Positions 5,560 to 28,251 of a stretch of 33,783 bases of DNA are shown one piece after another. The notes under the pieces were generated by a model. It did not search any database. It had not been told where the DNA came from and was given only the letters and a program-made list of their open reading frames with translations. A program made the translations under genes and the position numbers. Within the stretch, counting starts at the first letter, position 1. Each line of letters begins with the position of its first letter. This DNA comes from an uncultured Quadrisphaera sp. (GTDB taxonomy: Bacteria; Actinomycetota; Actinomycetes; Actinomycetales; Quadrisphaeraceae): NCBI GenBank assembly GCA_902806005.1, contig CADCUY010000602.1:1-33783 (forward strand). The letters run 5' to 3'.

Positions 5560-6987
5560 TCAGGCCGCCGCGGCGTGCACGGGGGACGCCGCGCCCGTCG
5601 CCGTGGCGGCGGGCGAGGGGCGCCCCAGCCCGCGGTGGTCCCACCCCGCGGCGGCCCACCGCTGGGCGTCCAGGGCGTTGCGGGCGTCGATGACCCTGGG
5701 GTGTCGCACCACGGCGGCCAGGGCGGCGGGGTCGATCGAGCGGTACTCCTCCCACTCGGTGAGCAGCAGGACGACGTCGGCGCCCGCGCTGGCCTGCTGC
5801 GCGGTGGGGGCGTAGTCCAGCTCGGGGTGCTGGCGGCGGGCGTTGTCGACCGCGGCGGGGTCGGTGACGGTCACGTGGGCGCCCTCGGCGCGGAGGCGGG
5901 CCGCGACGTCGAGGGCCGGGGAGTCGCGCACGTCGTCGCTGAGCGGCTTGAACGCCGCTCCCAGGACGGCGACCCGGGCCCCGGCCAGGTCGCCGCCGAC
6001 CGCGGCGCGGGCGAGCTCGACGACCTTGGCGCGCCGGCGCAGGTTGATCGCGTCGACCTCGGTGAGGAAGCCGACGGCCTGGCCGGCGCCGAGCTCGGTG
6101 GCGCGGGCGGTGAAGGCGCGGATGTCCTTGGGCAGGCACCCGCCGCCGAAGCCGAGGCCGGCGCCGAGGAACTTGCGCCCGATCCGGTCGTCGTGGCCGA
6201 TGGCGTCGGCCAGGGTGGTCACGTCCGCGCCGGCGGCGTCGCAGACCTCGGCGATGGCGTTGATGAAGGAGATCTTCGTGGCCAGGAACGCGTTGGCGGC
6301 GACCTTGACCAGCTCCGCGGTGGGCCGGTCGGTGACGATCACCGGGGTCCCGGTGGCGATGGCGCGGGCGTACACCCGCCGCAGCAGGGTCTCAGCGCGG
6401 GTGGAGACGACCCCGAAGACGAGGCGGTCGGGGGTCAGGGTGTCGGCGACGGCGTGGCCCTCGCGCAGGAACTCCGGGTTCCACGCCACCTCCAGGTCGG
6501 TGGCGCTGAGGGTCTGGGCGAGGTCAGCGGCGGTGCCGACCGGGACGGTGGACTTGCCCACGATCACCGCGGTACCGGGCAGGACCTGGGCCAGGGCCTG
6601 GACCGCGGCGGTGACGTACTGGGTGTCAGCGGCCAGCTCACCAGGGCGCTGGGGGGTGCCCACGCACACGAAGACCACGTCGGCGCCCTGCAGGTCGCTC
6701 ACGTCGGTGGTGAAGGCCAGGCCCTCGCCGTGGGTGCGGGCCAGCAGGTCCTCCAGGCCGGGCTCGAAGAACGGGGCCCGGGCCTCGCGCAGGGCCTCCA
6801 CCTTGGCCGCGTCGACGTCGTACCCGATCACCCGGTGACCCAGGTCGGCCATGCACGCGGCGTGCACAGCCCCCAGGTACCCCAGGCCGACCACCCCGAC
6901 GGTCAACTGGCCGGAGCCGGACCCGGAACCGGGCTCGGAGCCGATGCTGGTGGGAGCAGTGGTGGGAGCGGTGGTGGGAGCAGTCAT
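5560..6987 (-). CDS. ugd: UDP-glucose 6-dehydrogenase family (UDP-Glc/GDP-Man dehydrogenase)
   Basis: LTVGVVGLGYLGAVHAACMADLGHRVIGYDVD (Rossmann), VPVGTAADLAQTL, NPEFLREGHAVADTLTPDRLVFGV, GLGFGGGCLPKDIRAF catalytic Cys motif; start MTAPTTAPTTAPTSIG at 6987. Confidence 0.92.
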   Translation of the reverse strand: MTAPTTAPTTAPTSIGSEPGSGSGSGQLTVGVVGLGYLGAVHAACMADLGHRVIGYDVDAAKVEALREARAPFFEPGLEDLLARTHGEGLAFTTDVSDLQGADVVFVCVGTPQRPGELAADTQYVTAAVQALAQVLPGTAVIVGKSTVPVGTAADLAQTLSATDLEVAWNPEFLREGHAVADTLTPDRLVFGVVSTRAETLLRRVYARAIATGTPVIVTDRPTAELVKVAANAFLATKISFINAIAEVCDAAGADVTTLADAIGHDDRIGRKFLGAGLGFGGGCLPKDIRAFTARATELGAGQAVGFLTEVDAINLRRRAKVVELARAAVGGDLAGARVAVLGAAFKPLSDDVRDSPALDVAARLRAEGAHVTVTDPAAVDNARRQHPELDYAPTAQQASAGADVVLLLTEWEEYRSIDPAALAAVVRHPRVIDARNALDAQRWAAAGWDHRGLGRPSPAATATGAASPVHAAAA

Positions 6988-7055: not shown

Positions 7056-8204
7056 TCAGGTGCACTCGATCGTGCTGAGCCCCTCCTCGGCGTCGATGGC
7101 CTCGTTGGAGCAGGTGACGCGGTTGCCGTCGACGTCCTTGACGTCGATCCCGTAGCCGGGCCCGCGCACGTCGGCGGTGTTGCCGTCGAAGGTGTTGTCG
7201 GTGCCCCAGCCGTCGACGACCTCCTGCACCTCGAAGCCGGAGCGCTCGGAGGTGGTGCCGCGGTTGGCCTGGACGAGCCACCCGTTGCCCTTGAGGTCCA
7301 CCCACGAGTCGGTGTCGTCGGCCATGCCGGCGCCGTCGAAGGTGTTGCCGTGCACCACCCCGCCGGTGGTGCCCTCCTTGATGTCGACGGCCTCGGCCGT
7401 GGTGTCGGTGATGGTGTTGGCGGTGATGACGTTGCGGTCGCTCTCGTCGGGCTCGCAGTCGCTCAGGTCGCACCAGTTGGACTCGGCGGTGCCGACGTAC
7501 ACGCCCTCGCCGAAGCGCTCCTTGCGCTGGCCGGTGTCGGAGATCGTCAGCCCGCGCACCACGTTGTCGGTGCTCCCGGTGCGCAGGTGCACCGCCTCGT
7601 CACCGATCTCGGTGACCGTCAGGTCCTGCAGCACGCTCGAGGTCGTGCCGTCGGCCATCACGCCCTTCTGGCCCTCGCGGACGGTGAACCCCACCAGCCG
7701 CCAGTGCGCCACCCCCTGCAGGTGCAGCACGAAGCCGTCGTCGGTGCCCGGGCCCTGCAGCACCGCGCCCGCCCTGCCGCACACCCACACCGGGTCGGTC
7801 TCCGTGCCGTCGGCGGAGGCGGTGAACTCGCCCTCGTACACCCCGTCGGCGAGGGTGACCAGGTCGCCCGGGCCCGCCTCGTCGAGCGCCTCCTGCAGCT
7901 CCTCGGCGTCGGTCACCTCGACGTCGCGGCCGGGGTCCCGGGCGCCGTCCGGGCAGGACACCGCGGCGGTGTCCGGCAGCCCCGCGGGCATCCGCACCGG
8001 GGCGGCCGTCGGGGCGGGGGGGCTCGCCGGCGCCGAGGACCCGGGCCGGTCGCCCCCGTCGGCGACGGGGCCGCCCGGTGGCAGCCCGCCCGGCAGGAGC
8101 GTCAGCAGCAGGACGAGGACGCCGACCGCGCTGACCGCCAGGAGCAGGGCGGTCGCGCCCACGGCCAGGCGGGCGGAGCCCACGTCGGTCAGGCGGTCGC
8201 TCAC
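7056..8204 (-). CDS. Membrane-anchored right-handed beta-helix protein (polysaccharide-lyase/chondroitinase-B-like fold)
   Basis: GTG start; N-terminal TM segment, Pro-rich linker, then VTDAEELQEALDEAGPGDLVTLADGVYEGEF and repeated N-x-I/F beta-helix coils; 4-nt overlap with the upstream gene. Confidence 0.8.
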   Translation of the reverse strand: MSDRLTDVGSARLAVGATALLLAVSAVGVLVLLLTLLPGGLPPGGPVADGGDRPGSSAPASPPAPTAAPVRMPAGLPDTAAVSCPDGARDPGRDVEVTDAEELQEALDEAGPGDLVTLADGVYEGEFTASADGTETDPVWVCGRAGAVLQGPGTDDGFVLHLQGVAHWRLVGFTVREGQKGVMADGTTSSVLQDLTVTEIGDEAVHLRTGSTDNVVRGLTISDTGQRKERFGEGVYVGTAESNWCDLSDCEPDESDRNVITANTITDTTAEAVDIKEGTTGGVVHGNTFDGAGMADDTDSWVDLKGNGWLVQANRGTTSERSGFEVQEVVDGWGTDNTFDGNTADVRGPGYGIDVKDVDGNRVTCSNEAIDAEEGLSTIECT

Positions 8205-9808
8205 GGGTGCCTCGGGGCCGCTCGCCGGCCGCCGCGCCGCCCGAGCAGCAGCGGACGGCGGAGGAGGGCCACCAGCAGCGGGACCCCGAGGATCAGGCCC
8301 CACAGGACCAGCAGCGGGTTCCAGCGCAGCAGCTGCTGCACCGAGGTCAGCCACGTCGTGTCCCGCTGGGTCTGACCGGCCAGCACCAGGTCGGTGGAGA
8401 CCCTGGTGGTCGGGTTCTCGCCGAGCTGGGCGCTGCCGGGCTCGGCGACGTTCACCGCGGCCCAGGCCCCGGTGATCCGGTTGCCGTCGACCTCGGCCTC
8501 GCGCACGGTGGGCAGCACGTCGACGGCGTAGCGGTAGCTGTCGGTGATGTCGTTGTCCACGACGGTGACCTCGGCCCGGTCCTTGACCCGGACCCCGACG
8601 TAGTTGTCGCGCAGGTCGTTGCCGGCGACGAGGTTGCGCTCCCCGCCCTCGATCTCGACGCCGCTGCCCTCGTTGCCGTAGGCGGTGTTGTCGATGACGA
8701 GGTTGCCGTCCGAGGGTGACAGGCGCGCGTCGCCCTCCACCGTGGTCGTCGACCGGCCGTCGTCGATCATGAAGCCGTGGCCGGCGTTGTCGAAGGAGGT
8801 GTTGCCGCGCATGACGTTGTTGTCGCAGCCGCGCGAGAAGATGAACCCGTGCCGGCCGTTCCCGCTGGCGGTGTTGCCCACGACGAGGAAGTTGTTGCTG
8901 AAGTCGTGCGGGTCGAAGCCGTACTCGTCGTTGTCGGTGAAGGCGTTGCCCGTCCAGTCCATCGCCTCGGCCTCGTGGGTGTAGGCGCCGAAGCGGTTGC
9001 GCGTGAACGTCGAGGCCGTCACCGTGCCGGTCACGGCCTCGCGGATCCTGCCCGACTCCGGCTCGGCCGAGCGGCCGCGCCAAGCGACCCCGGAGCTGGT
9101 GCCGGTGCCGAAGCCGAGGCTGTCGAAGACGGCGTGGTCGGCGTCGAAGCGCCCCGCGACCTGGAGCACGAAGGAGCGGCCGTCCGCGGTGTCCGCGTCG
9201 GGTGCGGCCGCCTCCTCGTCCCAGGAGGTGATCGAGACGGGCTGCTCCGGGGTGCCGTCGACCGTCAGGGTCCCCTGGGAGATCAGCGTGGCGAACTCCC
9301 GCGTGCTGCTGGTCAGCCGCACCACCGGGGTGGCGCCGTCGACGACCAGCGACGCCCCGCGGCCGACGTGCACGTGCGCCTCGAGCAGCACCGCCCCGTC
9401 CGGCCCGGTGGGCATGACCTCGGGGTGCAGGTCGCGCAGCTCCGCCAGGGTGTAGGGCTGGGCGCGCGGGCCGAGCACCACGGTGGGCAGCTCGCCCGGC
9501 CGGGCCGGGCCCTCCAGGGGGGCGTCGAGCCGGAAGGCCTCGACGACCGCCGAGGTGCTCAGCCGGCGGGCGATGCGGTGGCTCACCGAGTCGCGCTCGA
9601 GCTCGGCGAGCGCGACGTCGGTCGGGGTCTGGATCAGGGGCTCGTGGGGGACGGCGCCCAGCTCGGGCGGCCGTGCGGGCGGCTCGTAGGCGGCCGCCCC
9701 CACGACCAGCGCGGACGGCACCAGCAGCACCGCGAGGAGCGCGGTGACCAGGCGGCGGGCGCGGAGCTCGGCGCTGACGCCGCGGTCAGCTCGCACGGCG
9801 GCCCTCAC
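8201..9808 (-). CDS. Bitopic right-handed beta-helix protein, AlgG-like mannuronan C5-epimerase candidate
   Basis: N-terminal TM, NosD/CASH-type repeats, YGFDPHDFSNNFLVVGNTASGNGRHGFIFSRGCDNNVMRGNTSFDNAGHGFMIDDG, C-terminal TM (LLVLWGLILGVPLLVALL) and an Arg-rich tail. Confidence 0.75.
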   Translation of the reverse strand: MRAAVRADRGVSAELRARRLVTALLAVLLVPSALVVGAAAYEPPARPPELGAVPHEPLIQTPTDVALAELERDSVSHRIARRLSTSAVVEAFRLDAPLEGPARPGELPTVVLGPRAQPYTLAELRDLHPEVMPTGPDGAVLLEAHVHVGRGASLVVDGATPVVRLTSSTREFATLISQGTLTVDGTPEQPVSITSWDEEAAAPDADTADGRSFVLQVAGRFDADHAVFDSLGFGTGTSSGVAWRGRSAEPESGRIREAVTGTVTASTFTRNRFGAYTHEAEAMDWTGNAFTDNDEYGFDPHDFSNNFLVVGNTASGNGRHGFIFSRGCDNNVMRGNTSFDNAGHGFMIDDGRSTTTVEGDARLSPSDGNLVIDNTAYGNEGSGVEIEGGERNLVAGNDLRDNYVGVRVKDRAEVTVVDNDITDSYRYAVDVLPTVREAEVDGNRITGAWAAVNVAEPGSAQLGENPTTRVSTDLVLAGQTQRDTTWLTSVQQLLRWNPLLVLWGLILGVPLLVALLRRPLLLGRRGGRRAAPRHP

Positions 9809-11024
9809 CGGGAGCAGCCGCGACGGGGAGGCTGGCGGGGAGGACGATCTCGCCCTGGCCCTGCACCCGGCCGGCAGCCGTGCGGGTCAGCCAGCCCTGG
9901 CGGTTCATGGTCACGGCGGCCCACAGCTTGACCGGCAGGGCGACGAACGCCACGACCAGGGCCATCAGCGGGGCGAGGGCGAGGTCGCGGGGGTTCTCCC
10001 TCAGGTGCGACAGCCCGCGCAGCGACCGGCCGACCACGGCCCAGGCCAGCACCAGGGCGAGGGCGGGCCAGCCACCGCGGGTGGTCCACGCGACGCCGTA
10101 GAAGACGGCGGCGCCCATCGTCACCGGGGTCAGGAGCACCTGCAGCACCGTCACCTGCGTGATCAGCGGCTGGCGCCACAGCCACCCCTGGGCCAGAGCG
10201 GTCAGGTAGGTCCGGTAGGAGTTGCGGCTCCAGCGCACCCGCTGCCGCACGAAGGCGCTCCAGGAGTCGGGGAACATGGAGTCGGCCTGGGCCGAGGCCT
10301 GGTGCACGGTGCGGTAGCCGGAGGCCAGCACCAGCCAGGTCAGCCGGCCGTCGTCACCGGCGACGCAGTAGCGGCCCAGGAACTTCTCGTGCTCCAGCGC
10401 CGGCATCAGCGGCAGCACCACCGAGCGGCGGTAGGCGGCCGTGCGGCCCGAGAGCACCGCTACCGCGCCCCACCGCGACATCGCCGGCACGTAGTCGAGG
10501 TAGCGGGTGTTCAGCAGCCAGTACGCGACCCGCCGCCGGACGTCCGAGGACGGCAGGTGGACGTGCTGGCGCGAGCCGACGCCGCCGACCCGGGAGTCGA
10601 CGAAGGGCATCTGCAGGGCGGCCAGCGCCCCCGGCCGCCACGAGGTGTCGGAGTCGGCGAAGACCACGAGCTCGCTGGTCGCCGCCCGGACGCCCGCCCC
10701 CAGCGCACCGCGCTTGCCGGTGTGCCGCCACGGCAGCACCACGACCCGCGGCAGGTCGAGGCGGTGGAGCCTGGCCAGGAGCACCTCGTCGAGGTCGTCG
10801 ACGACGAGGATGACCTCGGTGGGGTCCTCGGCGAGCCAGGTGCGCAGGCAGCGCTCGAGGACGTCGGCGTCCTCCCGGTAGACCGGCACCACCACGGACG
10901 TGGTGGTGCGGTAGCCGTTGACCACCTCCCGGTAGCCGTGGTGCGACAGGGTGCGGCGGACCAGCCAGACCGACCAGGACAGCAGCCCGATCAGCCCGAT
11001 GGGCAGCCAGAAGGACGTGGACAC
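9786..11024 (-). CDS. Processive family-2 glycosyltransferase (hyaluronan synthase/NodC-like)
   Basis: SVVVPVYRED, VVFADSDTSWRPG, AGDDGRLTWLVLASGYRT, QRVRWSRNSYRTYL (QxxRW), several TM segments; 23-nt overlap with the epimerase-like gene. Confidence 0.9.
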   Translation of the reverse strand: MSTSFWLPIGLIGLLSWSVWLVRRTLSHHGYREVVNGYRTTTSVVVPVYREDADVLERCLRTWLAEDPTEVILVVDDLDEVLLARLHRLDLPRVVVLPWRHTGKRGALGAGVRAATSELVVFADSDTSWRPGALAALQMPFVDSRVGGVGSRQHVHLPSSDVRRRVAYWLLNTRYLDYVPAMSRWGAVAVLSGRTAAYRRSVVLPLMPALEHEKFLGRYCVAGDDGRLTWLVLASGYRTVHQASAQADSMFPDSWSAFVRQRVRWSRNSYRTYLTALAQGWLWRQPLITQVTVLQVLLTPVTMGAAVFYGVAWTTRGGWPALALVLAWAVVGRSLRGLSHLRENPRDLALAPLMALVVAFVALPVKLWAAVTMNRQGWLTRTAAGRVQGQGEIVLPASLPVAAAPGEGRRAS

Positions 11025-11908: not shown

Positions 11909-12793
11909 TCACCCGGTGGTGAAGGCCTGGCGGTTCTCCTCGACGAACTCGGCGAAGCTGCGCGGCGCGCGCCCGGTGATCGCGCGGACGGTCTCGGTGA
12001 AGACGTCCCCGTCGTCCCGGCCGTGGCGCACGACGTCGCGGAACTGGTGGCGCAGGCCCGCGGCGGTGAACGCGTCGTCGCCGGTCGCGCGCAGCAGGGC
12101 GTAGAAGAGCGGGCTGGGCAGGCGCACGGAGCGCACCCGGCGCCCCAGCACCGCGCTCAGCTGGTCGGCGACGGCGGGCAGCGACAGGAGCTCGGGGCCG
12201 GTCAGCACGTGCGTGCGCCCCTCGTGGCCGCCCTCCACGAGCACCCGGACGGCGACCGCGGCGATGTCGGCGGTGTCGATCCACCCCGTGACGCCCCGGC
12301 CGCTGGTCTGCGGCAGCACGCCGCGGCGGATGCCGGCCGCGGACTCGAGGAAGTTCTGCACGAACGCCGCCGGCCGCAGCAGCGTCCAGGCGACCGGCGA
12401 CGCCTGCAGCAGCGCGTCGGTGCAGGCGGGGGCGCTCGCCCAGGGGATCGCCGAGGCGGGGTTCGCGTCGGCGGTCGAGAGGTGCACCACCCGCTGCACC
12501 CCTGCCGCCAGGGCGGCCTCGACCGCGTTGCGGCCGTGCTGGCGCTGGCTCGCACCGGGGAAGGTCAGCAGGAAGAGCCGGTCGGCACCCTCCACGGCCG
12601 CACGGAGGCTGGCCGGGTCACCGAGGTCGCCGAGCACGGCGTCGACGCCCCGGTCCCGGACGTCGTCGACCTGCTGCTGGCGACGGCACAGGGCGCGCAC
12701 CGGCTCGCCCGCGTCGGCGAGCCCGGTCACGACCTGGCGGCCGATGCCGCCCGTGGCACCGGTGACCAGGACGGCGCTGGACCGGTCGGGCAC
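11909..12793 (-). CDS. NAD(P)-binding NmrA-like/atypical SDR reductase
   Basis: VLVTGATGGIGRQVVTGLADAGEPVRALCR, VQRVVHLSTADAN, WTLLRPAAFVQNFLE. Confidence 0.9.
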   Translation of the reverse strand: MPDRSSAVLVTGATGGIGRQVVTGLADAGEPVRALCRRQQQVDDVRDRGVDAVLGDLGDPASLRAAVEGADRLFLLTFPGASQRQHGRNAVEAALAAGVQRVVHLSTADANPASAIPWASAPACTDALLQASPVAWTLLRPAAFVQNFLESAAGIRRGVLPQTSGRGVTGWIDTADIAAVAVRVLVEGGHEGRTHVLTGPELLSLPAVADQLSAVLGRRVRSVRLPSPLFYALLRATGDDAFTAAGLRHQFRDVVRHGRDDGDVFTETVRAITGRAPRSFAEFVEENRQAFTTG

Positions 12794-12872
12794 GACGCCG
12801 ACCTGCGCCCGGTGTGGATCTCCTGCCGCTGGGCCGCAGACCCGTGGCCGCGGCGACGGGCATGCTGGGGCG

Positions 12873-14699
12873 GTGGACCAGACCTACACGCCGATCGCCG
12901 ACCACGGAGCCATCGGCGACCTCCGCACGGCAGCCCTGGTGGGCGCGGACGGGCGGATCGACTGGTTCTGCTGCCCCCGCTTCGACTCCCCCAGCGTCTT
13001 CGGCGCCGTCCTGGACGCCGCCCGCGGCGGGCACTGGACCATCGCCCCGGCCGGCCGGGCCGGCAGCCGCCAGTTCTACCTGCCCGACACCAACGTCCTC
13101 GTCACGCGCTTCTCGGCGGCCGGCGGCGTCGTGGAGGTGACGGACCTCATGCCCGTCCTCCGCCCGCACGACCCGGACCACCGCCAGCGCCTGGTGCGCC
13201 GGGTGAGCGCCGTCCGCGGGTCGCTGGCGATGCGTTCCACCCTCGCTCCGCGCTTCGACTACGGCCGCGCCGAGCACACCGCGACCCCGCGCGAGGGGGG
13301 AGTGCTCCTCGCAGGACCCGGCCTGACCCTCGTCCTCACCACCGAGCTCCCCGTGGAGGTGAGCGACGGGGACGTCACGGGCGCCTTCACCCTCGACGAG
13401 GGCGAGGTGGCGACCTTCGTGCTCGACGTGGTGCCCGACACGGACCCCGGGCAGCACCCGGCGAGGGGCCCGGCGGCCCCGCCGGCGGACGCGGACGCGC
13501 TGGTGACCGGCACCATCGCCTTCTGGCGCGCGTGGGTGGGGCGCTCGCGCTACGCGGGGCGGTGGCGCGAGACGGTCAACCGGTCAGCGCTGACGCTCAA
13601 GCTGCTCACCCACGAGCCGAGCGGCGCCATCGTCGCCGCCGCCACGATGGGGCTGCCCGAGGAGATCGGCGGGAGCAGGAACTGGGACTACCGCCACGTG
13701 TGGATCCGCGACGCCGCCTTCTCCCTCTACGCCCTGCTGCGCCTGGGCTTCACCGACGAGGCGGAGGCGTTCATGGACTGGCTGACCGACCGCTTCACCG
13801 CCGGTGACGCCGACGCCGACGGCGACGGGCCCCTGCGGGTGGTGTACGACATCGACGGCCGCTCCACCGCGGGCGAGGAGGTGCTCGAGCACTGGGAGGG
13901 CCACCGCGGGTCGTTCCCGGTGCGGGTGCGCAACGACGCGGCCGACCAGCTGCAGCTGGACATCTACGGCGAGCTGATCGACTCGATCTACCTGTTCAAC
14001 AAGCACGGCAAGGGCATCTCCTACGACTCCTGGCGCAGCCTGCAGGGCGTCGCGGCGTGGCTGCAGGAGAACTGGGACCGCCCCGACGAGGGCATCTGGG
14101 AGGTGCGCTCGGGACGGCGAGCGCACACCTTCTCCCGCCTGATGTGCTGGGTGGCCCTGGAGCGGATGGCCCGGATGGCCCGTCAGCGCGGCCTGCCCGG
14201 CGACGTCGCGGACTGGTCGCGCACCCGCGACCGGATCTTCGCCGACATCCTCGAGCGCTGCTGGGACCCGCAGCTGCGCGCCTTCGTGCAGTCCCCCGGC
14301 AGCGGGGTGCTCGACGCGTCGGTGCTGCTCATGCCGATGGTCAAGTTCCTGGCTCCCAACGACCCGCGCGTGGTCTCCACCCTCGCGGCCCTCGAGGACG
14401 TCCTGGTCACCGACTCCCTGGTCTTCCGCTACGACCCCGCCGCCGCGCCCGACGGGGTGGACGGCGCGGAGGGCACCTTCTCGATGTGCTCGTTCTGGTA
14501 CGTCGAGGCCCTCACCCGCACCGGCCGGCTCGAGGACGCCCGCCTGGCCCTGGAGAAGATGTTCACCTACGCCAACCCCCTCGGCCTCTACGCGGAGCAG
14601 GTGGGCCTGACCGGGGAGCAGCTGGGCAACTTCCCCCAGGCCTTCACCCACCTGTCGCTGATCAGCGCCGCGATCAACCTCGACCGCGCGCTCGGCTGA
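12873..14699 (+). CDS. Glycoside hydrolase family 15 protein (glucoamylase/trehalase-like)
   Basis: VDQTYTPIADHGAIGDLRTAALVGADGRIDWFCCPRFDSPSVFGAVLD, NRSALTLKLLTHEPSGAIVAAATMGLPEEIGGSRNWDYRHVWIRDAAFSLYALLRLGF, GNFPQAFTHLSLISAAINLDRAL. GTG start in frame with the long ORF. Confidence 0.94.
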   Translation: MDQTYTPIADHGAIGDLRTAALVGADGRIDWFCCPRFDSPSVFGAVLDAARGGHWTIAPAGRAGSRQFYLPDTNVLVTRFSAAGGVVEVTDLMPVLRPHDPDHRQRLVRRVSAVRGSLAMRSTLAPRFDYGRAEHTATPREGGVLLAGPGLTLVLTTELPVEVSDGDVTGAFTLDEGEVATFVLDVVPDTDPGQHPARGPAAPPADADALVTGTIAFWRAWVGRSRYAGRWRETVNRSALTLKLLTHEPSGAIVAAATMGLPEEIGGSRNWDYRHVWIRDAAFSLYALLRLGFTDEAEAFMDWLTDRFTAGDADADGDGPLRVVYDIDGRSTAGEEVLEHWEGHRGSFPVRVRNDAADQLQLDIYGELIDSIYLFNKHGKGISYDSWRSLQGVAAWLQENWDRPDEGIWEVRSGRRAHTFSRLMCWVALERMARMARQRGLPGDVADWSRTRDRIFADILERCWDPQLRAFVQSPGSGVLDASVLLMPMVKFLAPNDPRVVSTLAALEDVLVTDSLVFRYDPAAAPDGVDGAEGTFSMCSFWYVEALTRTGRLEDARLALEKMFTYANPLGLYAEQVGLTGEQLGNFPQAFTHLSLISAAINLDRALG

Positions 14700-15684
14700 C
14701 CGCTCCCGCCGAGGGCGCCGAGGACCGGGCCCCGGCTCCGGCCCTCCGCGGTCCTGACCTGGTGCGGCGGAACTCGCTGGGGTTGACGCCGCGGACGCGC
14801 TTGAAGGCGGCGCTGAAGGTGAAGGCGTCGGCGTAGCCCACGGTGCGGGCGACCTCGGCGATCGTGGCTCCCTCCCGCTCGACCAGCAGGTCCGCCGCCA
14901 GGGTCATCCGCCAGCGGGTCAGGTACGTCGACGGCGGTTCCTCGACCAGCTCGGCGAAGCGCTTGGCGAAGGTGGCGCGGGAGACCCCGACCCGGCCGGC
15001 GAGCGTCGAGACGGTCCACGGCGCAGCCGGCTCGGCGTGCAGCAGCCGCAGGGCGCGACCGACCACGGCGTCGCGGTGCGCGGCGTACCACGCCGGGGCC
15101 CCGCTGTCGGGGCGCTCGAACCACTCGCGCAGCGCGCAGACGAGCATCCAGTCCAGCAACCGGTCGAGCACCACCTGCTGGCCCGGCGCGTCGACGGCGA
15201 CCTCGGCGGCCAGCAGGTCGAGCACGGCACCCGCCGCGCCGCCGGCGTCCACGCGCAGCACGACGGGCAGCGCCCCCAGCAGCCGCTGCCCGATCTCGCC
15301 GGTCACCGGGTAGGCGCCGACGACCAGGGTGGTGGCGCCACCGCCGTCGCCCGGCGCAGGGTCGTTCCACCCGAGCCGGTGCAGGGTGCCGCCCTGGTCG
15401 GGCGTCGCGCAGTGCTCTCCGGACTCGACCGGCTCGGCCCGGGTCCCGACCTCGTCGACGAAGGTGAACCGCGCCGGGCCCCGCACGACCACCATGGCGC
15501 CCGCGGTCAGCCGCTCGGGCGGGTGACCGTCGGGGACGATCCACCCCGAGCCCTCGAGCACGGTGCACAGCGTCAGCGGGGGGCCGTCGACGAACCGCAG
15601 CGACCACGGCGCGGTCAGGGTCGAGCGGCCGAACAGCGACCCCTGGGCGCGGACGCCGCGGAACAGGTCACTGAAGGCGTCCAC
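14674..15684 (-). CDS. AraC family transcriptional regulator with cupin sensor domain
   Basis: VDAFSDLFRGVRAQGSLFGRSTLTAPWSLRF… (cupin) and VSTLAGRVGVSRATFAKRFAELVEEPPSTYLTRWRMTLAADLLVEREGATIAEVARTVGYADAFTFSAAFKRVRGVNPSEFR (double HTH). Confidence 0.93.
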   Translation of the reverse strand: MDAFSDLFRGVRAQGSLFGRSTLTAPWSLRFVDGPPLTLCTVLEGSGWIVPDGHPPERLTAGAMVVVRGPARFTFVDEVGTRAEPVESGEHCATPDQGGTLHRLGWNDPAPGDGGGATTLVVGAYPVTGEIGQRLLGALPVVLRVDAGGAAGAVLDLLAAEVAVDAPGQQVVLDRLLDWMLVCALREWFERPDSGAPAWYAAHRDAVVGRALRLLHAEPAAPWTVSTLAGRVGVSRATFAKRFAELVEEPPSTYLTRWRMTLAADLLVEREGATIAEVARTVGYADAFTFSAAFKRVRGVNPSEFRRTRSGPRRAGAGARSSAPSAGAVSRARGRG

Positions 15685-15690
15685 ACCGAG

Positions 15691-15696
15691 ACGGTA
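15691..15696 (-). promoter_or_regulatory. Candidate -10 (TACCGT) 6 nt before AraC GTG; leaderless
   Basis: Minus strand TCTACCGT-ctcggt-GTG. Confidence 0.5.
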
Positions 15697-15755
15697 GACG
15701 ACCGCACAGGCCGCCGGCCCCGCGCCTGCGGAAGGATCCGCAGCCCCCCTGCGGC

Positions 15756-15783
15756 TTGCACCTGACGCTGACGTCAGGTGCAA
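15756..15783. promoter_or_regulatory. Perfect operator-like dyad TTGCACCTGACG-CTGA-CGTCAGGTGCAA
   Basis: 12-bp perfect arms, 4-nt centre, in the AraC/SDR divergent region; other dyads lie at 15727-15742, 15738-15754 and 15794-15818. Confidence 0.8.
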
Positions 15784-15829
15784 CGCTCGCTCCGCTCCCG
15801 CGGACGGTCCGCAGGAGCAGGAAGGCACC

Positions 15830-16540
15830 ATGGACATCGAAGGCTCCGTCGCGCTGGTCACCGGCGGCAACCGCGGCATCGGGCGCCAGTTCGTCGACGA
15901 GCTCCTGCGGCGCGGCGCCAGCAGGGTCTACGCCGCGGTGCGCCGCCCCGAGCGGGCCGACGTGCCCGGGGCGCACCTGCTGCAGGTCGACATCACCGAC
16001 CCCGCGGCCGTGACCGCGCTGGCCGCTGCGGCGCCCGACGTGACCCTGCTGGTCAACAACGCCGGCATCGCCACCACCACCTCGCTGGTCACCGGCGACC
16101 TCGACGTCATCCGCCAGGAGATGGAGACCCACTACTTCGGCACCCTGTCGGTGGTGCGGGCCTTCGCGCCGGTCCTGCGGCGCAACGGGGGCGGCGCGAT
16201 CGTCAACGTCCTCTCGGCCCTGTCGTGGTTCTCGTACAGCGGCTCCAACCCCTACGCCGCCGCCAAGGCCGCCGAGTGGAGCCTGACCAACGGGGTCCGC
16301 CTGGAGCTGGCCGCCCAGGGGACCCTCGTGCAGGGGGTGCACCTCGGGGCCGCCGACACCGAGCTGATGCCCGACTACGACGGACCCAAGATCGACCCCC
16401 TGGACGTCGCCCGGGCCTCCCTCGACGGCCTGGCGCGCGAGGAGCTCGAGGTCCTCGTCGACGACTGGAGCCGCATGATCAAGGCCAGCCTCGCCGGCGA
16501 CCCCCGCGAGTTCTACGGCCCGTCGCTGACGCTCCGCTGA
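15830..16540 (+). CDS. SDR family oxidoreductase
   Basis: MDIEGSVALVTGGNRGIGRQFVDELLRRGASRVYAAVRRPE, LLVNNAGI, YSGSNPYAAAKAAEW; SD caggaagg. Confidence 0.94.
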   Translation: MDIEGSVALVTGGNRGIGRQFVDELLRRGASRVYAAVRRPERADVPGAHLLQVDITDPAAVTALAAAAPDVTLLVNNAGIATTTSLVTGDLDVIRQEMETHYFGTLSVVRAFAPVLRRNGGGAIVNVLSALSWFSYSGSNPYAAAKAAEWSLTNGVRLELAAQGTLVQGVHLGAADTELMPDYDGPKIDPLDVARASLDGLAREELEVLVDDWSRMIKASLAGDPREFYGPSLTLR

Positions 16541-16619
16541 CGCCGGACCGGGCCGCCGCCTCGGACGACGACGCGGGTGGACCAGCCAGGTCGCCGAGCA
16601 CGGCCGGTACGCGCTGGGC

Positions 16620-17549
16620 TCAGGCGCGGGCGCCAGGAGGCGCTCCGCCGTCGTGCGACGGGGGCAGCACCTGGCGCGGGCGGGCGGGCGGCGCTCCCGC
16701 AGCGCCCGTCCGGGTCAGCGACCAGCTGCCGAGCAGGTCCATCGCCTCGCGGGAGCTGGTGCCGGCCTCGGTGGTGTAGACGAACAGCGTCTGGTGCGGG
16801 TCGTCGGGGAAGGTGAGGGTCTCGTAGTCGACGGTCAGGTCGCCGACGACGGGGTGCCGGAGGCGCTTGGAGCCGTGGGTGCGCTGGAAGACGCCGTGCT
16901 CGTCCCACCACCGGGAGAAGCGGCCGCTCGCGGCCGAGAGCTCGTCGACCAGCTCCTGGGCGGCGCGGTCGTGGGGGTCGGTGCCGACGGCCAGCCGCAG
17001 GCTCTCGACCGCAGCCCGCGCCTGCTCCTCCCAGTCGAGGAAGAGGGCGCGGGCCCGCTCGTCGAGGAACATCCAGCGGGCGTAGTTGCGCTCCCGTGGT
17101 CGCATCCGGTCGAAGTCGGCCAGCAGCGCTCGCGACATGCGGTTGGTGGCGAGCACGTCGCCGCGCCGCCCGAGGACGAACGCCGGCAGGCCGTCGACGG
17201 CGTCGAGGACCTGGTGCACGCCGGGACGCGCGCGCTGGACCGCCGGGAGGCGCTGCTCGGTGCGGGCGGAGGGGCCGAAGAGGTCGCGCAGGTGCGTGCG
17301 GCCGGCCGCGTCCAGGTCGAGCGCGCGGGCGAGCGCCTCCACGACCGAGGCCGACGGGCTGATGCGCCGGCCCTGCTCGAGCCGGGTGTAGTAGTCGGCC
17401 GAGACCCCGGCGAGCAGGGCGACCTCCTCGCGGCGCAGCCCCGGGACCCGGCGCACCCCGCCGGAGGACGGCACCCCGGCCCGGGTCGGGTCGATCCGGC
17501 CGCGAGCCCGGCGCAGGAAGTCCGCGAGCTCCCGGTTGTGCTCCGCCAC
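16620..17549 (-). CDS. XRE family regulator with MmyB-like ligand-binding domain
   Basis: VRRVPGLRREEVALLAGVSADYYTRLEQGRRISPSASVVEALARAL; C-terminal MmyB-like PAFVLGRRGDVLATNRMSRALL…RNYARWMFLD. Confidence 0.94.
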   Translation of the reverse strand: MAEHNRELADFLRRARGRIDPTRAGVPSSGGVRRVPGLRREEVALLAGVSADYYTRLEQGRRISPSASVVEALARALDLDAAGRTHLRDLFGPSARTEQRLPAVQRARPGVHQVLDAVDGLPAFVLGRRGDVLATNRMSRALLADFDRMRPRERNYARWMFLDERARALFLDWEEQARAAVESLRLAVGTDPHDRAAQELVDELSAASGRFSRWWDEHGVFQRTHGSKRLRHPVVGDLTVDYETLTFPDDPHQTLFVYTTEAGTSSREAMDLLGSWSLTRTGAAGAPPARPRQVLPPSHDGGAPPGARA

Positions 17550-17579
17550 GCGTCCATCCTCCCGCAGCCGGCGGTCGTC

Positions 17580-17646
17580 GTCCTGGCCCGCTCAGTCCTA
17601 GGGAGGAGCGCCGTCCGCCCCGGTCCTGGGTGCGCGTCCCCAGGAC
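17580..17646. promoter_or_regulatory. GTCCTNGG box cluster in XRE/SDR intergenic region, including dyad GTCCTGGG-N8-CCCAGGAC (17623-17646)
   Basis: Boxes at 17580 (GTCCTGGC), 17595 (GTCCTAGGG), 17623 (GTCCTGGG) and the inverted copy at 17639-17646. Confidence 0.6.
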
Positions 17647-17761
17647 GCGGAGGGCCAGGTGTCGGCGACCGGCGCCCCGGCGCGGAGCGCATCGTGGAAC
17701 CACCGCCGATCCGTCCCGGTGATCGGCCGCACCTCCCCACCGGGGAGACGAGGAGTACGAC

Positions 17762-18619
17762 ATGACGCACCCCACCGACCGCCCGGCCACCTGGCTGGTC
17801 ACCGGCGCCTCGCGCGGCATGGGCCTGGAGCTCGTGCGCCAGCTGCTGGCCCGCGGCGACCGGGTGACGGCGACCACCCGCTCCACCGAGCGCCTGCTCG
17901 CCGCCCTGGACGGCACCGACACCACCCGGCTGCACGCCGTCGCCGTGGACCTCACCGACCCCGCGTCGGTCGACGCCGCCGTCGCGGCCACCACGGAGCG
18001 GTTCGGCGGGCTCGACGTGGTGGTCAACAACGCCGGCTACGGCTTCCTCGCTGCGGTCGAGGAGACGTCCGACGCCGAGGCGCGGGAGATGTTCGACGTG
18101 CAGGTCTTCGGCCTGTGGAACGTGCTGCGCGCCACCCTGCCGGTCCTCCGCGCCGCCGGCAGCGGCCACGTCATCAACGTCTCGTCGATCCTCGGCCTGA
18201 CCGCCTTCCCCGGGTGGGGCGCCTACGTGGCGGCGAAGTTCGCCGTCGAGGGCCTGAGCGAGGCGCTGGCGGCGGAGGTCGCCGGCTTCGGGGTGGAGGT
18301 CACCGTGATCGAGCCCGGCTACTTCCGGTCCGACTTCCTCACCACCGACTCGCTGCGACTGCCCACGTCGACCACCGGCGGGTACGAGGCCGTCCGCGAG
18401 ATGACCGAGACCCACCTGGGCATGTCGGGCACCCAGCTCGGGGACCCCGTCAAGGCGGCCGCCGCGATCATCGCGGTCGCCGTGGACGGCGACGGCCCGC
18501 TGCACCAGGTCCTCGGCTCGGACGCCCACGCCCTGGCCGGCGCCAAGGTCGACGCCCTGCGCGCCGACCTCGAGGCCGGCCGCGACCTCGCCCTCAGCAC
18601 GGACCACGTCCGGGCCTGA
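17762..18619 (+). CDS. SDR family oxidoreductase
   Basis: TWLVTGASRGMGLELVRQLLARGDRVTATTRSTERL, VVNNAGYGF, WGAYVAAKFAVEGLSEAL; SD gaggag. Confidence 0.95.
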   Translation: MTHPTDRPATWLVTGASRGMGLELVRQLLARGDRVTATTRSTERLLAALDGTDTTRLHAVAVDLTDPASVDAAVAATTERFGGLDVVVNNAGYGFLAAVEETSDAEAREMFDVQVFGLWNVLRATLPVLRAAGSGHVINVSSILGLTAFPGWGAYVAAKFAVEGLSEALAAEVAGFGVEVTVIEPGYFRSDFLTTDSLRLPTSTTGGYEAVREMTETHLGMSGTQLGDPVKAAAAIIAVAVDGDGPLHQVLGSDAHALAGAKVDALRADLEAGRDLALSTDHVRA

Positions 18620-18703
18620 GCCGCCCGCCGGAGCGGAGGGCGCGGTCCCGGCGTGGCGGGTCGAGAGGGGGAACACCCCGGAGCGGACGGCGTTGCGCTG
18701 ATC

Positions 18704-19171
18704 ATGACCACGACGAGCACGACCAGCAGCACGCCCGCTGACGACGCGGCCGTGTACGCCGCCACCGCCACCGCGTGGGGCGGACGGGAGGGCCACGCGG
18801 CCTCCAGCGACGGGCGGCTCGACCTGCACCTGTCGGTGCCGGCCGCGATGGGCGGCGACGACGGGCCGGGCACCAACCCCGAGCAGATGCTCGCCACGGG
18901 CTGGGCCGCCTGCTTCCACCAGGCGCTCAAGGGAGCGGCCCGCGCCCGCAAGGCCGACGTGAGCGAGTCCGCGGTCACCGTGACCGTCGGTCTGGAGCGC
19001 AGCGACGCCGGCTTCGACCTGGCCGCCCGCATCGAGGCCGAGGTTCCCGGGGTCGACCCCGCGACGGCCCAGGACCTCCTGGCCGCCGCCCACGCGGCCT
19101 GCCCCTACTCCCGCGCCACGCGCGGCAACATCCGCCAGGAGGTCGTCCTGGTCGACTCCGCGGAGGGGTGA
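18704..19171 (+). CDS. ohr: Ohr subfamily organic hydroperoxide resistance peroxidase (OsmC fold)
   Basis: TNPEQMLATGWAACFHQALKGAAR and AAHAACPYSRATRGNIRQEVVLV carry both Cys motifs. Confidence 0.94.
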   Translation: MTTTSTTSSTPADDAAVYAATATAWGGREGHAASSDGRLDLHLSVPAAMGGDDGPGTNPEQMLATGWAACFHQALKGAARARKADVSESAVTVTVGLERSDAGFDLAARIEAEVPGVDPATAQDLLAAAHAACPYSRATRGNIRQEVVLVDSAEG

Positions 19172-19190
19172 GCGGGTCGCGCGGCCCGGG

Positions 19191-19213
19191 CCCTCGTCCC
19201 GGCGGGGCGAGGG
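19191..19213. terminator. Bidirectional hairpin CCCTCGTCCC-GGC-GGGGCGAGGG
   Basis: 10-bp arms with one T/G (wobble) position between convergent ohr and marR genes. Confidence 0.6.
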
Positions 19214-19253
19214 ACCCGCTCGTCTCCGGGCGCGCTGGCACCCGGCGACGTCC

Positions 19254-19769
19254 TCAGGCGCGGGTCGCAGGCCCGGGCCGCGCTGCCGGAGCGCCCGCGT
19301 CGCGGCGCCCCAGCCACTGGCGGTGGGCGGCCATGCCCGCGCCCGCGGCCTCGAGGTAGCGGCGGGCGACCTCGAGCTCCTCAGGGGTGAACCGGTCCAT
19401 CGCGGCGTGGCTGCGCTCCCCGTAGGGGACGAAGAACTCCTGCGCCAGCGCCCGCCCCTCCGTCGAGAAGTGCAGGAGCACCTTGCGCCGGTCGGCGCCG
19501 TCGCGCACCCGGCTCACGTGCCCGGCGCGCTCGAGCCGGTCCACCACCGCGGTGATCGCCCCCGAGGTCAGCCCCAGCTCCTCGGCCAGCGCGCCGGCGG
19601 TCAGCGGCTCCCCCCGCTCCTGCGCGACCATCACCCGGGTCAGGGCCTCCACGTCGGTCTGGTGCAGCCCGTGCAGGGCGGCGAAGGCGGCCATGACCTT
19701 GGTGCCCTCCACGACCAGCAGCTGGGTCAGGCGCACGAGCTCCTCGCGGGTGTTGCCGTCGTCGCCCAT
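19254..19769 (-). CDS. MarR family transcriptional regulator (Cys-free)
   Basis: MGDDGNTREELVRLTQLLV…LTAGALAEELGLTSGAITAVVDRLERAGHVSRVRDGADRRKVLLHFSTEGRALAQEF. Confidence 0.93.
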   Translation of the reverse strand: MGDDGNTREELVRLTQLLVVEGTKVMAAFAALHGLHQTDVEALTRVMVAQERGEPLTAGALAEELGLTSGAITAVVDRLERAGHVSRVRDGADRRKVLLHFSTEGRALAQEFFVPYGERSHAAMDRFTPEELEVARRYLEAAGAGMAAHRQWLGRRDAGAPAARPGPATRA

Positions 19770-19782
19770 CGCCCCTAATCTT

Positions 19783-19809
19783 TCAATCAATGAGATGTTC
19801 AGTGATTGA
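19783..19809. promoter_or_regulatory. MarR-type operator dyad TCAATCAATGA-GATGT-TCAGTGATTGA
   Basis: 11-bp arms with one mismatch; AT-rich island between MarR and FAD-monooxygenase; contains TTGA(CA). Confidence 0.75.
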
Positions 19810-21505
19810 CACGTCCGAGGGGTCCGACGCTACCCCCGCCACCGAGGACGGGGTCGCCCCGCCGCACGCCACGGACCTCGTGTGCGACGTCGTCGTGGTC
19901 GGCGCCGGGCCCACCGGCCTGATGGCCGCGGGCGTGCTCACGCGGCTCGGCGTGCGCACCGTCGTCCTGGACGGGAAGGCCGGGCCCACCCGGGAGTCGC
20001 GGGCCCTGGGCCTGCAGGCGCGCACGATGGAGGTCTACGACCAGCTGGGGATCGTCGACCAGGTGCTGGCACGGTCCTGGCGGGCCGACGCCCTGGCGGT
20101 CGGGTTCGAGCGGCGGCACCTGGGCCGGATCCCCCTCGGCGCCGCCGGGCGCCGGACCACCCCGTACCCGGCGATCCACGTGCTCGAGCAGAGCGAGAAC
20201 GAGCGGATCCTCCACCGGCACCTCCAGGACCGGGGCGGGCGGGTGCACTGGGGGCACCGGGTGTCCGCCCTGGAGGACGTCCCCGGCGGGGTGCTGGCCA
20301 CCGCCGAGCACGAGGGCGGGGTGGTGCGGGTCCGCGCCCGGTGGTGCGTGGCCGCGGACGGGGCGTCCTCGTTCGTGCGCGGACGACGCGGGATCCCCTA
20401 CGAGGGGTCGACGAGCGAGCGCAGCTACTACGTGGCCGACGCCGTCGGCGTCGAGGGCCTGGTCGCCGGTGCCGTCAACGAGCGGCTGGGACGGCAGGAC
20501 TTCCTGCTCAGCTTCCCGATGGGCGAGTCGGTGGTCGAGGGAGGAGCGTCCTCGCACTGCCGGCTCCTCGGTGCCGTGCGGGGCCTCGGCGACGGCGAGG
20601 GCGGCGCGCCCGGCACCAGCAGCGCCGGGGTCACCGAGGCCGGGGTGCGGGCGGTGCTCGAGCGGGTGCACGGGGTCACGTACGCGTCGTCGACGTGGTT
20701 CGCGACCTACCGGGTGCACCACCGGGTGGCGGCCCGGTTCCGCGACGGTCCCGTGTTCCTCGCCGGCGACGCCGGGCACGTGCACGCCCCGGTCGGGGCG
20801 CAGGGGATGAACACCGGGCTGCAGGACGCGCACAACGTGGCCGCCAAGCTCGCCGACGTCGTCGCCGGGATCGCCTCCGACGCCTCCCTGGACCGCTACG
20901 AGGCCGAGCGGCGGCCCGTGGCGCTGCACCTGGTGCGCACCACCGACCGGATCTTCGCCGTCGCCACCTCCCAGCGCCGCTCCGCACGGGCCCTGCGCCG
21001 GTGGCTCGTGCCGCTCGTGGTCCCGGTCCTCGAGCGGGTCACCCCGCACCTGCCCGGTGGTGGGCGCACGATCCAGTTCCTCTCCCAGGTGCGCATCCAC
21101 TACTGGATGAGCGACCGGGCGAAGGCCGCCGCGCGGGGCCGGCGCGGGCAGGTGGTCGGGCGCCGGCTGCCGTGGACGGAGCCCGGCCACGCCGCGCTGC
21201 GCTCGCTGCGCTGGCAGGCCCACAGCTACGGGCCCCTGGACGAGGGCGTCGCCGCCCGGCTGCGCGAGCTCGGCCTCGAGGTGCACGTCCTCGACCCCGC
21301 ACCGGAGACCGGGCTGCGCCCCGAGCTGGTGCACCTCGTGCGCCCCGACGGCTTCGTCGCCGCCGCCGTCCCCGCGCACCGCGCGGGCACGGACCTGGTG
21401 ACCGCCCTGCCCGACCGGTGGCCGGTCCCCGGCGGACGCCGACGCGGACCCGTCAGCGCCGACCCGCCGTCGACCCGTGCGACCGTCGTCGCCTCGAGGA
21501 GCTGA
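19790..21505 (+). CDS. FAD-dependent aromatic monooxygenase (PHBH/TetX-like)
   Basis: CDVVVVGAGPTGLMAAGVLTRLGVRTVVLDGKAGPTRESRALGLQARTMEVYDQLG and VFLAGDAGHVHAPVGAQGMNTGLQDAHNVAAKL; true start may be internal (GTG 19802 or GTG 19879). Confidence 0.93.
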   Translation: MRCSVIDTSEGSDATPATEDGVAPPHATDLVCDVVVVGAGPTGLMAAGVLTRLGVRTVVLDGKAGPTRESRALGLQARTMEVYDQLGIVDQVLARSWRADALAVGFERRHLGRIPLGAAGRRTTPYPAIHVLEQSENERILHRHLQDRGGRVHWGHRVSALEDVPGGVLATAEHEGGVVRVRARWCVAADGASSFVRGRRGIPYEGSTSERSYYVADAVGVEGLVAGAVNERLGRQDFLLSFPMGESVVEGGASSHCRLLGAVRGLGDGEGGAPGTSSAGVTEAGVRAVLERVHGVTYASSTWFATYRVHHRVAARFRDGPVFLAGDAGHVHAPVGAQGMNTGLQDAHNVAAKLADVVAGIASDASLDRYEAERRPVALHLVRTTDRIFAVATSQRRSARALRRWLVPLVVPVLERVTPHLPGGGRTIQFLSQVRIHYWMSDRAKAAARGRRGQVVGRRLPWTEPGHAALRSLRWQAHSYGPLDEGVAARLRELGLEVHVLDPAPETGLRPELVHLVRPDGFVAAAVPAHRAGTDLVTALPDRWPVPGGRRRGPVSADPPSTRATVVASRS

Positions 21506-21507
21506 CC

Positions 21508-22209
21508 GTGCACCTCGCCGTCTTCGGGGCCAACGGCCCCACCGGCCGCCTCGTCGTCGCCCAGGCCCTGGCCGCGGGACACCACGTGACCGCGGTGACC
21601 CGCGAGCCCGACCGGTACCCGATCACCGCGCCCCGGCTGCGGGTGGCCGCCGCGGACGTCACCGACCCCGACGGCGTCGACCGGGTGCTCGCCGCGCGAC
21701 CGCAGGCCGTCGTCTCCACCTACGGGGTGCCCTACACCCGCGAGCCGGTCACCGTGTACTCCCAGGGCATCGCCGCGATCACCGCGGCGATGCACGCCCA
21801 CGGCGTCGAGCGGCTGGTGTGCGTCACCTCCACGACCGTCAGGACCGAGACCGCACCCGGCGAGTCGCTGCTCGGGCGCAGGGTGCTCCTCCCCCTCCTG
21901 CGCCGCGTCGTCGGGCGCACGCTCTACGACGACATGGAGCGGATGGAGGCGATCGTCCGGAGCAGCGGACTGCGGTGGACGATCGTGCGGCCGGGCGGCC
22001 TGTTCGACACCGACGGGCCCACCGACGACCACGAGGTCGCACCGGGGCCCCTGGCCGGCCGGGTCACCTCGCGCGCCGACCTGGCGGCGGCGCTGGTCGC
22101 CGAGGCGACCGAGGACCGGCACCCGCGCACGGTGGTCGAGGTGGTCACCCGATCGCAGCACCCCTCCCCCGCCACCTTCGTCCGGCAGGCCCTCGGCCTC
22201 GGCCGGTGA
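21508..22209 (+). CDS. NAD(P)H-binding NmrA-like protein
   Basis: VHLAVFGANGPTGRLVVAQALAAGHHVTAVTREPDRY, ERLVCVTSTTVR, WTIVRPGGLFDTDG; directly follows the monooxygenase stop with SD gaggagctg. Confidence 0.9.
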   Translation: MHLAVFGANGPTGRLVVAQALAAGHHVTAVTREPDRYPITAPRLRVAAADVTDPDGVDRVLAARPQAVVSTYGVPYTREPVTVYSQGIAAITAAMHAHGVERLVCVTSTTVRTETAPGESLLGRRVLLPLLRRVVGRTLYDDMERMEAIVRSSGLRWTIVRPGGLFDTDGPTDDHEVAPGPLAGRVTSRADLAAALVAEATEDRHPRTVVEVVTRSQHPSPATFVRQALGLGR

Positions 22210-22307
22210 GGCGCTCGGTCAGCGGGCCACCAGGGCGTCGGCCGGGTCGCCACCGACCGCCGACGGGCGCGTCGGGGCCGCGAGCTCCGCGACCGGCTGG
22301 CGGGCGG

Positions 22308-23087: not shown

Positions 23088-23194
23088 GGTGCCTCCTGGT
23101 GTCGGGGGCTCCAGCCTCGGGCCGCGCCCGGGCACGGGGAAGGGTGCGCTGGTCGTGGGAGCGGTGCACCCAGGCTCCGCGCGCCGCGGGCCCC

Positions 23195-23200
23195 TACCGT
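23195..23200 (+). promoter_or_regulatory. Candidate -10 (TACCGT) 7 nt before XRE ATG; leaderless
   Basis: cccTACCGT-ggctggc-ATG. Confidence 0.5.
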
Positions 23201-23207
23201 GGCTGGC

Positions 23208-24044: not shown

Positions 24045-24109
24045 GGGCGACGGGCGACCACGGCCACCAGGAGCCGGGGGCGGCAGCGCCCTCCGGCGGA
24101 GGAGCCGGA

Positions 24110-24520: not shown

Positions 24521-24625
24521 GGCCGCGGATGGTGGCACGGACGCTCGGGCACCGTCCGAGGAGTCGGCGCCACCGTCGAGGCTCGCGGCGCGGCTGCGGA
24601 CCGCGGGCCGCAGCGGTCCGGAGGT

Positions 24626-25277: not shown

Positions 25278-25324
25278 ACTGCTTGCCGGTTCCGACCCAC
25301 GGACCGCCGAGACGAGGAGGCACC

Positions 25325-28250: not shown

Positions 28251-28251
28251 G

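What the first reader, a model, noticed from the sequence alone, without database searches (positions are those of the whole stretch)
8201..9808. AlgG-like DPHD epimerase motif in a doubly membrane-anchored beta-helix protein
YGFDPHDFSNNFLVVGNTASGNGRHGFIFSRGCDNNV has the DPHD signature and a following HGxxxSR segment of the AlgG/AlgE mannuronan C5-epimerase family. TM segments at both ends would hold the beta-helix outside the cell beside the synthase. AlgG is a soluble periplasmic protein, so this topology would be new for the family.
Basis: partly seen in the sequence, partly recalled or inferred. Interest (0 to 1): 0.7.

Follow-up and report, generated by a model that had tools for sequence, protein, structure and literature searches.

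The report
Membrane-tethered AlgG-like sugar-polymer epimerase
This actinomycete carries a four-gene operon that appears to make, modify and cut an acidic sugar polymer, in which the modifying enzyme is a relative of the alginate epimerase AlgG that has become tethered to the membrane at both ends and probably works on a glucuronic-acid rather than a mannuronic-acid chain.

Summary
ORF 8201-9808(-) is a real gene. It has YGFDPHD...HGFIFSR, hydrophobic segments at 20-38 and 498-516, and a right-handed beta-helix between them. AlgG is its closest known relative by sequence (phmmer 2e-16) and by fold (Z 45; next family AlgE4, Z 35), and the DPHD and Arg columns align. Conserved charges put both ends inside and the beta-helix outside. 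The double anchor is shared by a whole actinomycete family, so it is not a one-off.

The gene lies in an operon: a hyaluronan-synthase-like GT2, then the epimerase, then a PL31-type lyase with its active site intact, then a UDP-glucose-dehydrogenase-type enzyme. The GT2-epimerase pair recurs in Kineococcus, Blastococcus, Modestobacter, Microbacteriaceae and others. The genome carries a second copy.

I found no AlgD-type GDP-mannose dehydrogenase in seven genomes with this cluster. Best reading: a membrane-tethered polymer-level C5-epimerase acting on a glucuronate-containing chain as the synthase extrudes it. The sugar is inferred, not shown.

The family also splits into a DPH clade and a deep second clade (xGLxxHR) beside the same synthase. 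No operon-level description turned up in the searchable literature. It is a new variant of a known kind.

The parts
9786..11024 (-). Processive GT2 polysaccharide synthase (412 aa), first gene of the operon; hyaluronan-synthase-like, with DSDT, GDDGRLTW and RQRVRW motifs
   Evidence: Pfam Glyco_tranf_2_3 7e-27; phmmer best match HAS1 4e-20; fold: hyaluronan synthases Z 28-32, PcManGT 30.4, cellulose synthases about 20-25
8201..9808 (-). AlgG-like right-handed beta-helix C5-epimerase homologue with a membrane segment at each end (the finding)
9695..9751 (-). N-terminal hydrophobic segment, residues 20-38 (N-side charge +3, C-side -1)
8903..8923 (-). YGFDPHD active-site motif, residues 296-302; His301 aligns with the AlgG catalytic His
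8831..8833 (-). Arg326 of HGFIFSR, aligned with the Arg of the AlgG HGIIISR segment
8261..8317 (-). C-terminal hydrophobic segment, residues 498-516 (N-side charge 0, C-side +6)
7056..8204 (-). PL31-type (PsAly-like) polyuronate lyase with one N-terminal membrane segment; start overlaps the epimerase stop by 4 bp (GTGA); all seven invariant PsAly active-site residues and E181/E216/D219 of the first cation site are kept
   Evidence: 6kfn phmmer 9e-43; residue map; residues defined in PMC6796002
5560..6987 (-). UDP-glucose 6-dehydrogenase-type enzyme (NPEFLREGHAVADTLTPDRLVFG), last gene of the operon
   Evidence: NCBIfam TIGR03026 9e-122; UGD 4a7p 328 bits versus GDP-mannose dehydrogenase AlgD 168 bits; motif; ATG at 6987

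Best explanation
The protein is an AlgG-superfamily, polymer-level uronate C5-epimerase. It is fixed to the outer face of the cytoplasmic membrane by a helix at each end, so that its beta-helix groove sits beside the exit of the adjacent processive synthase. The UGD-type enzyme makes UDP-GlcA, the hyaluronan-synthase-like GT2 polymerises and extrudes a GlcA-containing chain, and the epimerase inverts C5 of some residues: His301 abstracts the proton, Tyr296 or water re-protonates the other face, and Arg326 steadies the carboxylate. The PL31-type lyase then trims or clears the chain. Shown here: gene, motif, fold, two hydrophobic ends, charge bias, operon, conservation, and absence of a detected GDP-mannose dehydrogenase. 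Inferred: catalysis, the GlcA (to L-IdoA) substrate, physical coupling to the synthase, and the lyase's role.
For: Fold and motif: the AF2 model (beta-helix mostly pLDDT over 90) matches AlgG at Z 45 over about 350 residues, against 35 for AlgE4 and 31 or less for non-epimerases; DPHD and SR align with AlgG. Conservation: YG[FL]DPH[DT] in all 15 rows of the DPH-type alignment; AlgG falls inside this clade in the tree. Topology: positive-inside pattern, N-terminal segment seen in 13 of 15 and C-terminal segment in 15 of 15. Context: overlapping genes and the same GT2 neighbour in nearly all relatives. Chemistry: the lyase keeps the PsAly catalytic set, and in some relatives a PL14-family lyase lies in the cluster, so two different lyase families point to a polyuronate. 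GlcA: synthase sequence and fold nearest hyaluronan synthase; UGD-type motif and score; no AlgD-type dehydrogenase in the window genome (76% complete), Modestobacter lapidis (one dehydrogenase found, UGD-type), Planctomonas, a Microbacteriaceae genome, Kineococcus, Blastococcus or Nanopelagicales. The only AlgD-like enzyme in that set is in a separate Parafrankia cluster.
Against: PsAly, the characterised relative of the lyase, prefers polymannuronate (PMC6796002), and the characterised DPHD beta-helix epimerases act on mannuronan. Dehydrogenase specificity was judged from sequence only. The window's genome is incomplete, so a missing GDP-mannose dehydrogenase there is weak evidence. The fold match of the synthase is tied with an archaeal mannosyltransferase (Z 30.4), so the fold alone does not fix the sugar. 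Alg8, the mannuronan synthase of Pseudomonas, was not available for comparison. The N-terminal segment could be a cleaved signal peptide.
Confidence: 0.58

Rival explanations
1. The operon makes an actinobacterial alginate: the dehydrogenase is in fact a GDP-mannose dehydrogenase, the GT2 a mannuronan synthase, and the epimerase an ordinary mannuronan C5-epimerase, only tethered.
For: AlgG is the closest known protein; the lyase relative PsAly prefers polyM (PMC6796002); brown-algal mannuronan epimerases have actinobacterial closest bacterial relatives (PMC11468063); an alginate-like actinobacterial cluster with an AlgD-like dehydrogenase does exist in Frankia.
Against: The dehydrogenase scores 328 bits to UGD and 168 to AlgD, carries PDRLVFG and not the P-x-MTVIG seen in AlgD and the Frankia enzymes, and no AlgD-type enzyme was found elsewhere in these genomes.
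Confidence: 0.25
2. The protein is mainly a scaffold that guides or shields the nascent chain; epimerase activity is secondary or absent.
For: P. fluorescens needs the AlgG protein but not its epimerase activity for polymer formation (Gimmestad 2003, as titled in the reference list of PMC4432689); a sister clade beside the same synthase has lost Asp-Pro and Tyr, and two members lack the His.
Against: In the window's own clade Tyr, Asp, Pro and His are invariant and the Arg nearly so, which a pure scaffold would not require.
Confidence: 0.12
3. A generic NosD-like or carbohydrate-binding beta-helix protein with a chance DPHD.
For: Pfam's only hits are Beta_helix and NosD.
Against: AlgG stands 10 Z units above AlgE4 and about 16 above NosD, the motif is aligned with that of AlgG, and the gene is locked to a synthase.
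Confidence: 0.03

Closest known systems
AlgG, periplasmic mannuronan C5-epimerase (Pseudomonas; PDB 4nk6)
   Same: Right-handed beta-helix, Z 45 at 22% identity; YG-x-DPHD and HG-x-x-x-SR aligned; encoded with a GT2 synthase, a lyase and a sugar-nucleotide dehydrogenase
   Different: Membrane segments at both ends; UGD-type dehydrogenase in place of AlgD; lyase of the PL31 type; 84 bits against an equivalog cut-off of 700
AlgE-type extracellular epimerases (Azotobacter; 2pyg)
   Same: YGFDPH(D/E) motif and beta-helix, Z 35
   Different: No Ca-binding repeats detected; tethered rather than secreted; part of a synthase operon
PsAly, PL31 alginate lyase (6kfn), for the third gene
   Same: phmmer 9e-43; all seven invariant active-site residues and first cation site kept
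   Different: N-terminal membrane segment; encoded with a synthase; substrate may be a GlcA polymer
Hyaluronan synthase with HasB (UDP-glucose dehydrogenase)
   Same: GT2 sequence and fold nearest hyaluronan synthase; UGD-type gene in the same operon
   Different: Epimerase and lyase genes added; second sugar (if any) unknown
Brown-algal mannuronan C5-epimerases, reported closest to actinobacterial sequences (PMC11468063)
   Same: DPHD motif; actinobacterial relatives; the algal lyase SjAly keeps the PsAly catalytic residues (PMC6796002)
Glucuronyl C5-epimerase of heparan sulfate type
   Same: Would share the proposed reaction, GlcA to IdoA in a polymer
   Different: Different, mostly helical fold (own knowledge); not compared here

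Membership tests
AlgG (mannuronan C5-epimerase) | Right-handed parallel beta-helix with the AlgG arrangement | tested here: met
   AF2 model Z 45 to 4nk6/4ozz over about 350 residues, rmsd 2.2-2.6
AlgG (mannuronan C5-epimerase) | YG(F/I)DPH(D/E) motif (PMC8824271) | tested here: met
   YGFDPHD at residues 296-302, kept in close relatives
AlgG (mannuronan C5-epimerase) | Arg of the HG-x-x-x-SR segment | tested here: met
   Arg326 aligned
AlgG (mannuronan C5-epimerase) | NCBIfam equivalog cut-off, 700 bits | tested here: not met
   84.3 bits; none of 296 phylum genomes sampled passes it
AlgG (mannuronan C5-epimerase) | Soluble periplasmic protein | tested here: not met
   Hydrophobic segments with positive-inside charges at both ends; cleavage of the first one not excluded
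AlgG (mannuronan C5-epimerase) | Locus supplies GDP-mannuronate (AlgD-type dehydrogenase) | tested here: not met
   UGD-type in the operon by sequence; no AlgD-type found elsewhere in the genomes checked
AlgG (mannuronan C5-epimerase) | Epimerises poly-mannuronate | not testable with these tools
   Needs an enzyme assay
AlgE (extracellular epimerase) | R-modules after the A-module | tested here: not met
   Pfam gives only Beta_helix and NosD; the C-terminus is a membrane helix
PL31 (third gene) | Catalytic Tyr184 and Lys221 with conserved K128, H154, R156, D250, K252 (PsAly numbering) | tested here: met
   All seven identical in the window protein
UDP-glucose dehydrogenase (fourth gene) | UGD-type substrate loop rather than AlgD-type | tested here: met
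   NPEFLREG...PDRLVFG; activity itself not tested
Hyaluronan synthase-type GT2 (first gene) | Membrane-embedded processive GT2 fold with an HAS best match | tested here: inconclusive
   Hyaluronan synthases Z 28-32, but PcManGT 30.4 is tied; sequence best match HAS1 4e-20

The most novel reading that the evidence does not exclude
An AlgG-fold epimerase that converts D-glucuronate to L-iduronate inside a bacterial polymer, tethered at the mouth of a hyaluronan-synthase-like synthase in actinomycetes. This reaction is so far credited to a different protein fold. The same locus type, with its lyase, would also be a candidate for the actinobacterial source proposed for brown-algal alginate genes.
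Probability: 0.4. Interest if true: 0.82.

Novelty: new variant of a known kind. Interest (0 to 1): 0.6.

Why it matters
Brown-algal alginate genes have been proposed to come from an ancestral actinobacterium (PMC8307928), while the Streptomyces that carry PL41-lyase relatives are said not to be known to have an alginate biosynthetic pathway (PMC11468063). A conserved synthase-epimerase-lyase-dehydrogenase operon in cultured actinomycetes (Modestobacter lapidis, Kineococcus, Planctomonas deserti) makes that question testable. If the polymer is GlcA-based, it gives a new enzyme fold for making iduronate-containing polymers, which matters for heparin-like materials. The two-ended tether would also be a direct structural solution for coupling synthesis to modification in a cell without an outer membrane.

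Tried and rejected
Generic NosD-like beta-helix: rejected on Z gap, motif alignment and synteny. A one-off topology: rejected, since two hydrophobic ends recur family-wide. Ordinary alginate operon: disfavoured, no AlgD-type dehydrogenase. Viral origin: one scan of viral contigs gave a single weak hit (29% over 77 residues). I could not obtain Alg8 or algal sequences for direct comparison. Two early versions of the motif-census script failed and were repaired. Literature searches for an operon-level description in actinobacteria found none (the operon survey PMC7112194, searched by term, describes alginate operons largely in Pseudomonas); subscription journals are mostly not covered.

Full report
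Observation. The ORF at 8201-9808 on the minus strand is a real gene of 535 codons and holds the quoted peptide exactly. Pfam finds only Beta_helix and NosD. NCBIfam finds AlgG at 7e-24, although at 84 bits against an equivalog cut-off of 700. phmmer against the PDB puts AlgG first at 2e-16, with DPHD and HGxxxSR aligned column by column.

Structure. An AlphaFold model from a 23-row alignment has mean pLDDT 81, with most of the beta-helix above 90 and a helix at each end. Foldseek ranks AlgG first. VIA-align gives AlgG Z 45 over about 350 residues, AlgE4 35, phage tailspikes and others 31 or less. I could not inspect side-chain burial.

Topology. Hydrophobic segments lie at 20-38 and 498-516. 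Flanking charges are +3/-1 and 0/+6, which predicts both ends inside and the beta-helix outside. Of 15 aligned relatives, 13 show the N-terminal segment and all 15 the C-terminal one, with the same C-terminal bias. The N-terminal segment could still be a cleaved signal peptide, since the window protein has an AAA|Y-like site; relatives do not keep one consistently.

Operon. On the minus strand, GT2 (9786-11024), epimerase, PL31-type lyase (7056-8204) and UGD-type dehydrogenase (5560-6987) follow each other. The first two genes overlap by 23 bp and the next two by 4 bp; the last gap is 68 bp (coordinates). The genome holds a second copy of the first three genes plus part of the dehydrogenase on contig C554 (54% identity for the epimerase). 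Named relatives with DPHD come from Kineococcus, Blastococcus, Modestobacter (including M. lapidis), Glaciihabitans, Planctomonas deserti, other Microbacteriaceae, a Nanopelagicales genome and Conexibacter, almost all directly after the same GT2. The distribution is patchy: 31 of 394 genomes of the class and 21 of 396 of the order had a match.

The other genes. The lyase matches PsAly (6kfn) at 9e-43. The seven residues reported as fully conserved in the PsAly active site and the three of its first cation site are all identical (residues from PMC6796002). In Blastococcus, Modestobacter and Frankia a PL14-family lyase gene also lies in or beside the cluster. The synthase matches hyaluronan synthase best by sequence and by Foldseek; in the VIA second look the hyaluronan synthases (Z up to 31.6) tie with an archaeal mannosyltransferase and stand above cellulose synthases.

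Which sugar. The dehydrogenase scores 328 bits to a UDP-glucose dehydrogenase and 168 to AlgD. Its substrate loop reads PDRLVFG; AlgD reads PPMTVIG and the dehydrogenases of a second Frankia cluster read PWMTVIG. A census of this enzyme family in ten genomes found only UGD-type or WecC-type enzymes wherever the DPHD cluster occurs with a UGD-type operon, and an AlgD-like one only in Parafrankia. Together with the synthase this favours a GlcA-containing chain. It remains an inference: PsAly prefers polymannuronate, and the characterised relatives of the epimerase act on mannuronan.

Family history. A tree of 69 beta-helix domains has two deep clades, joined by a starred branch of 1.15 changes per column. 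The DPH clade holds the window protein, AlgG and the Frankia alginate-like epimerases. The other clade (37 rows with HR, 6 others) sits beside the same GT2 and keeps a His-Arg pair and a downstream Arg in most members, but not Tyr, Asp or Pro. The motif does not track the dehydrogenase type, since UGD occurs with both.

Comparison. The protein works like AlgG but is not filed as AlgG: location, locus supply of GDP-mannuronate and the equivalog cut-off were tested and not met. It is a membrane-tethered member of the wider AlgG superfamily. That actinobacteria hold DPHD epimerase relatives is already known (PMC11468063). The operon, its UGD/hyaluronan-synthase-like make-up, the double tether and the second clade were not found in the searchable literature.

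Limits. No activity was shown for any gene. Alg8 and algal proteins were not available. The window's genome is 76% complete.

Noticed in passing
L007-L026, L046-L053, L069-L091: A deep sister clade of beta-helix proteins beside the same GT2 has GLxxHR...R in place of YGFDPHD...SR. His-Arg is kept in 37 of 43 rows, Tyr/Asp/Pro are lost; two Frankiaceae members lack the His. It may be a different enzyme or a scaffold.
   Followed up: partly
L033, L036, L037, L038, L042 (GT2 ORFs): The synthases of several close relatives carry an N-terminal export-like segment, a Pro/Ala-rich linker and IPT/TIG-like domains fused before the GT2 (three TIG domains by Pfam in L037); the window's synthase does not.
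   Followed up: partly
L054-L057 (Frankia, Parafrankia): A separate alginate-like cluster: AlgD-like dehydrogenase (PWMTVIG), a GT2, DPHS epimerase with a C-terminal membrane helix, an AT3/SGNH acyltransferase and a PL14-family lyase.
   Followed up: partly
G000:C554 (L002, L121): Second copy of the operon in the same genome, 54% identical in the epimerase, 82% in the GT2 and 88-93% in the parts of the dehydrogenase compared.
   Followed up: partly
L034 (Kineococcus sp. TRM81007): Two near-identical UGD genes and two lyase genes flank the synthase and epimerase; the genome holds four UGD genes with the same loop sequence.
   Followed up: no
window 12213-31572: The genes sampled on the other side of the operon look ordinary and unrelated: GH15/trehalase-like, AraC-type regulator, short-chain dehydrogenases, FAD monooxygenase, MmyB-like regulator, epoxide hydrolase.
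   Followed up: no
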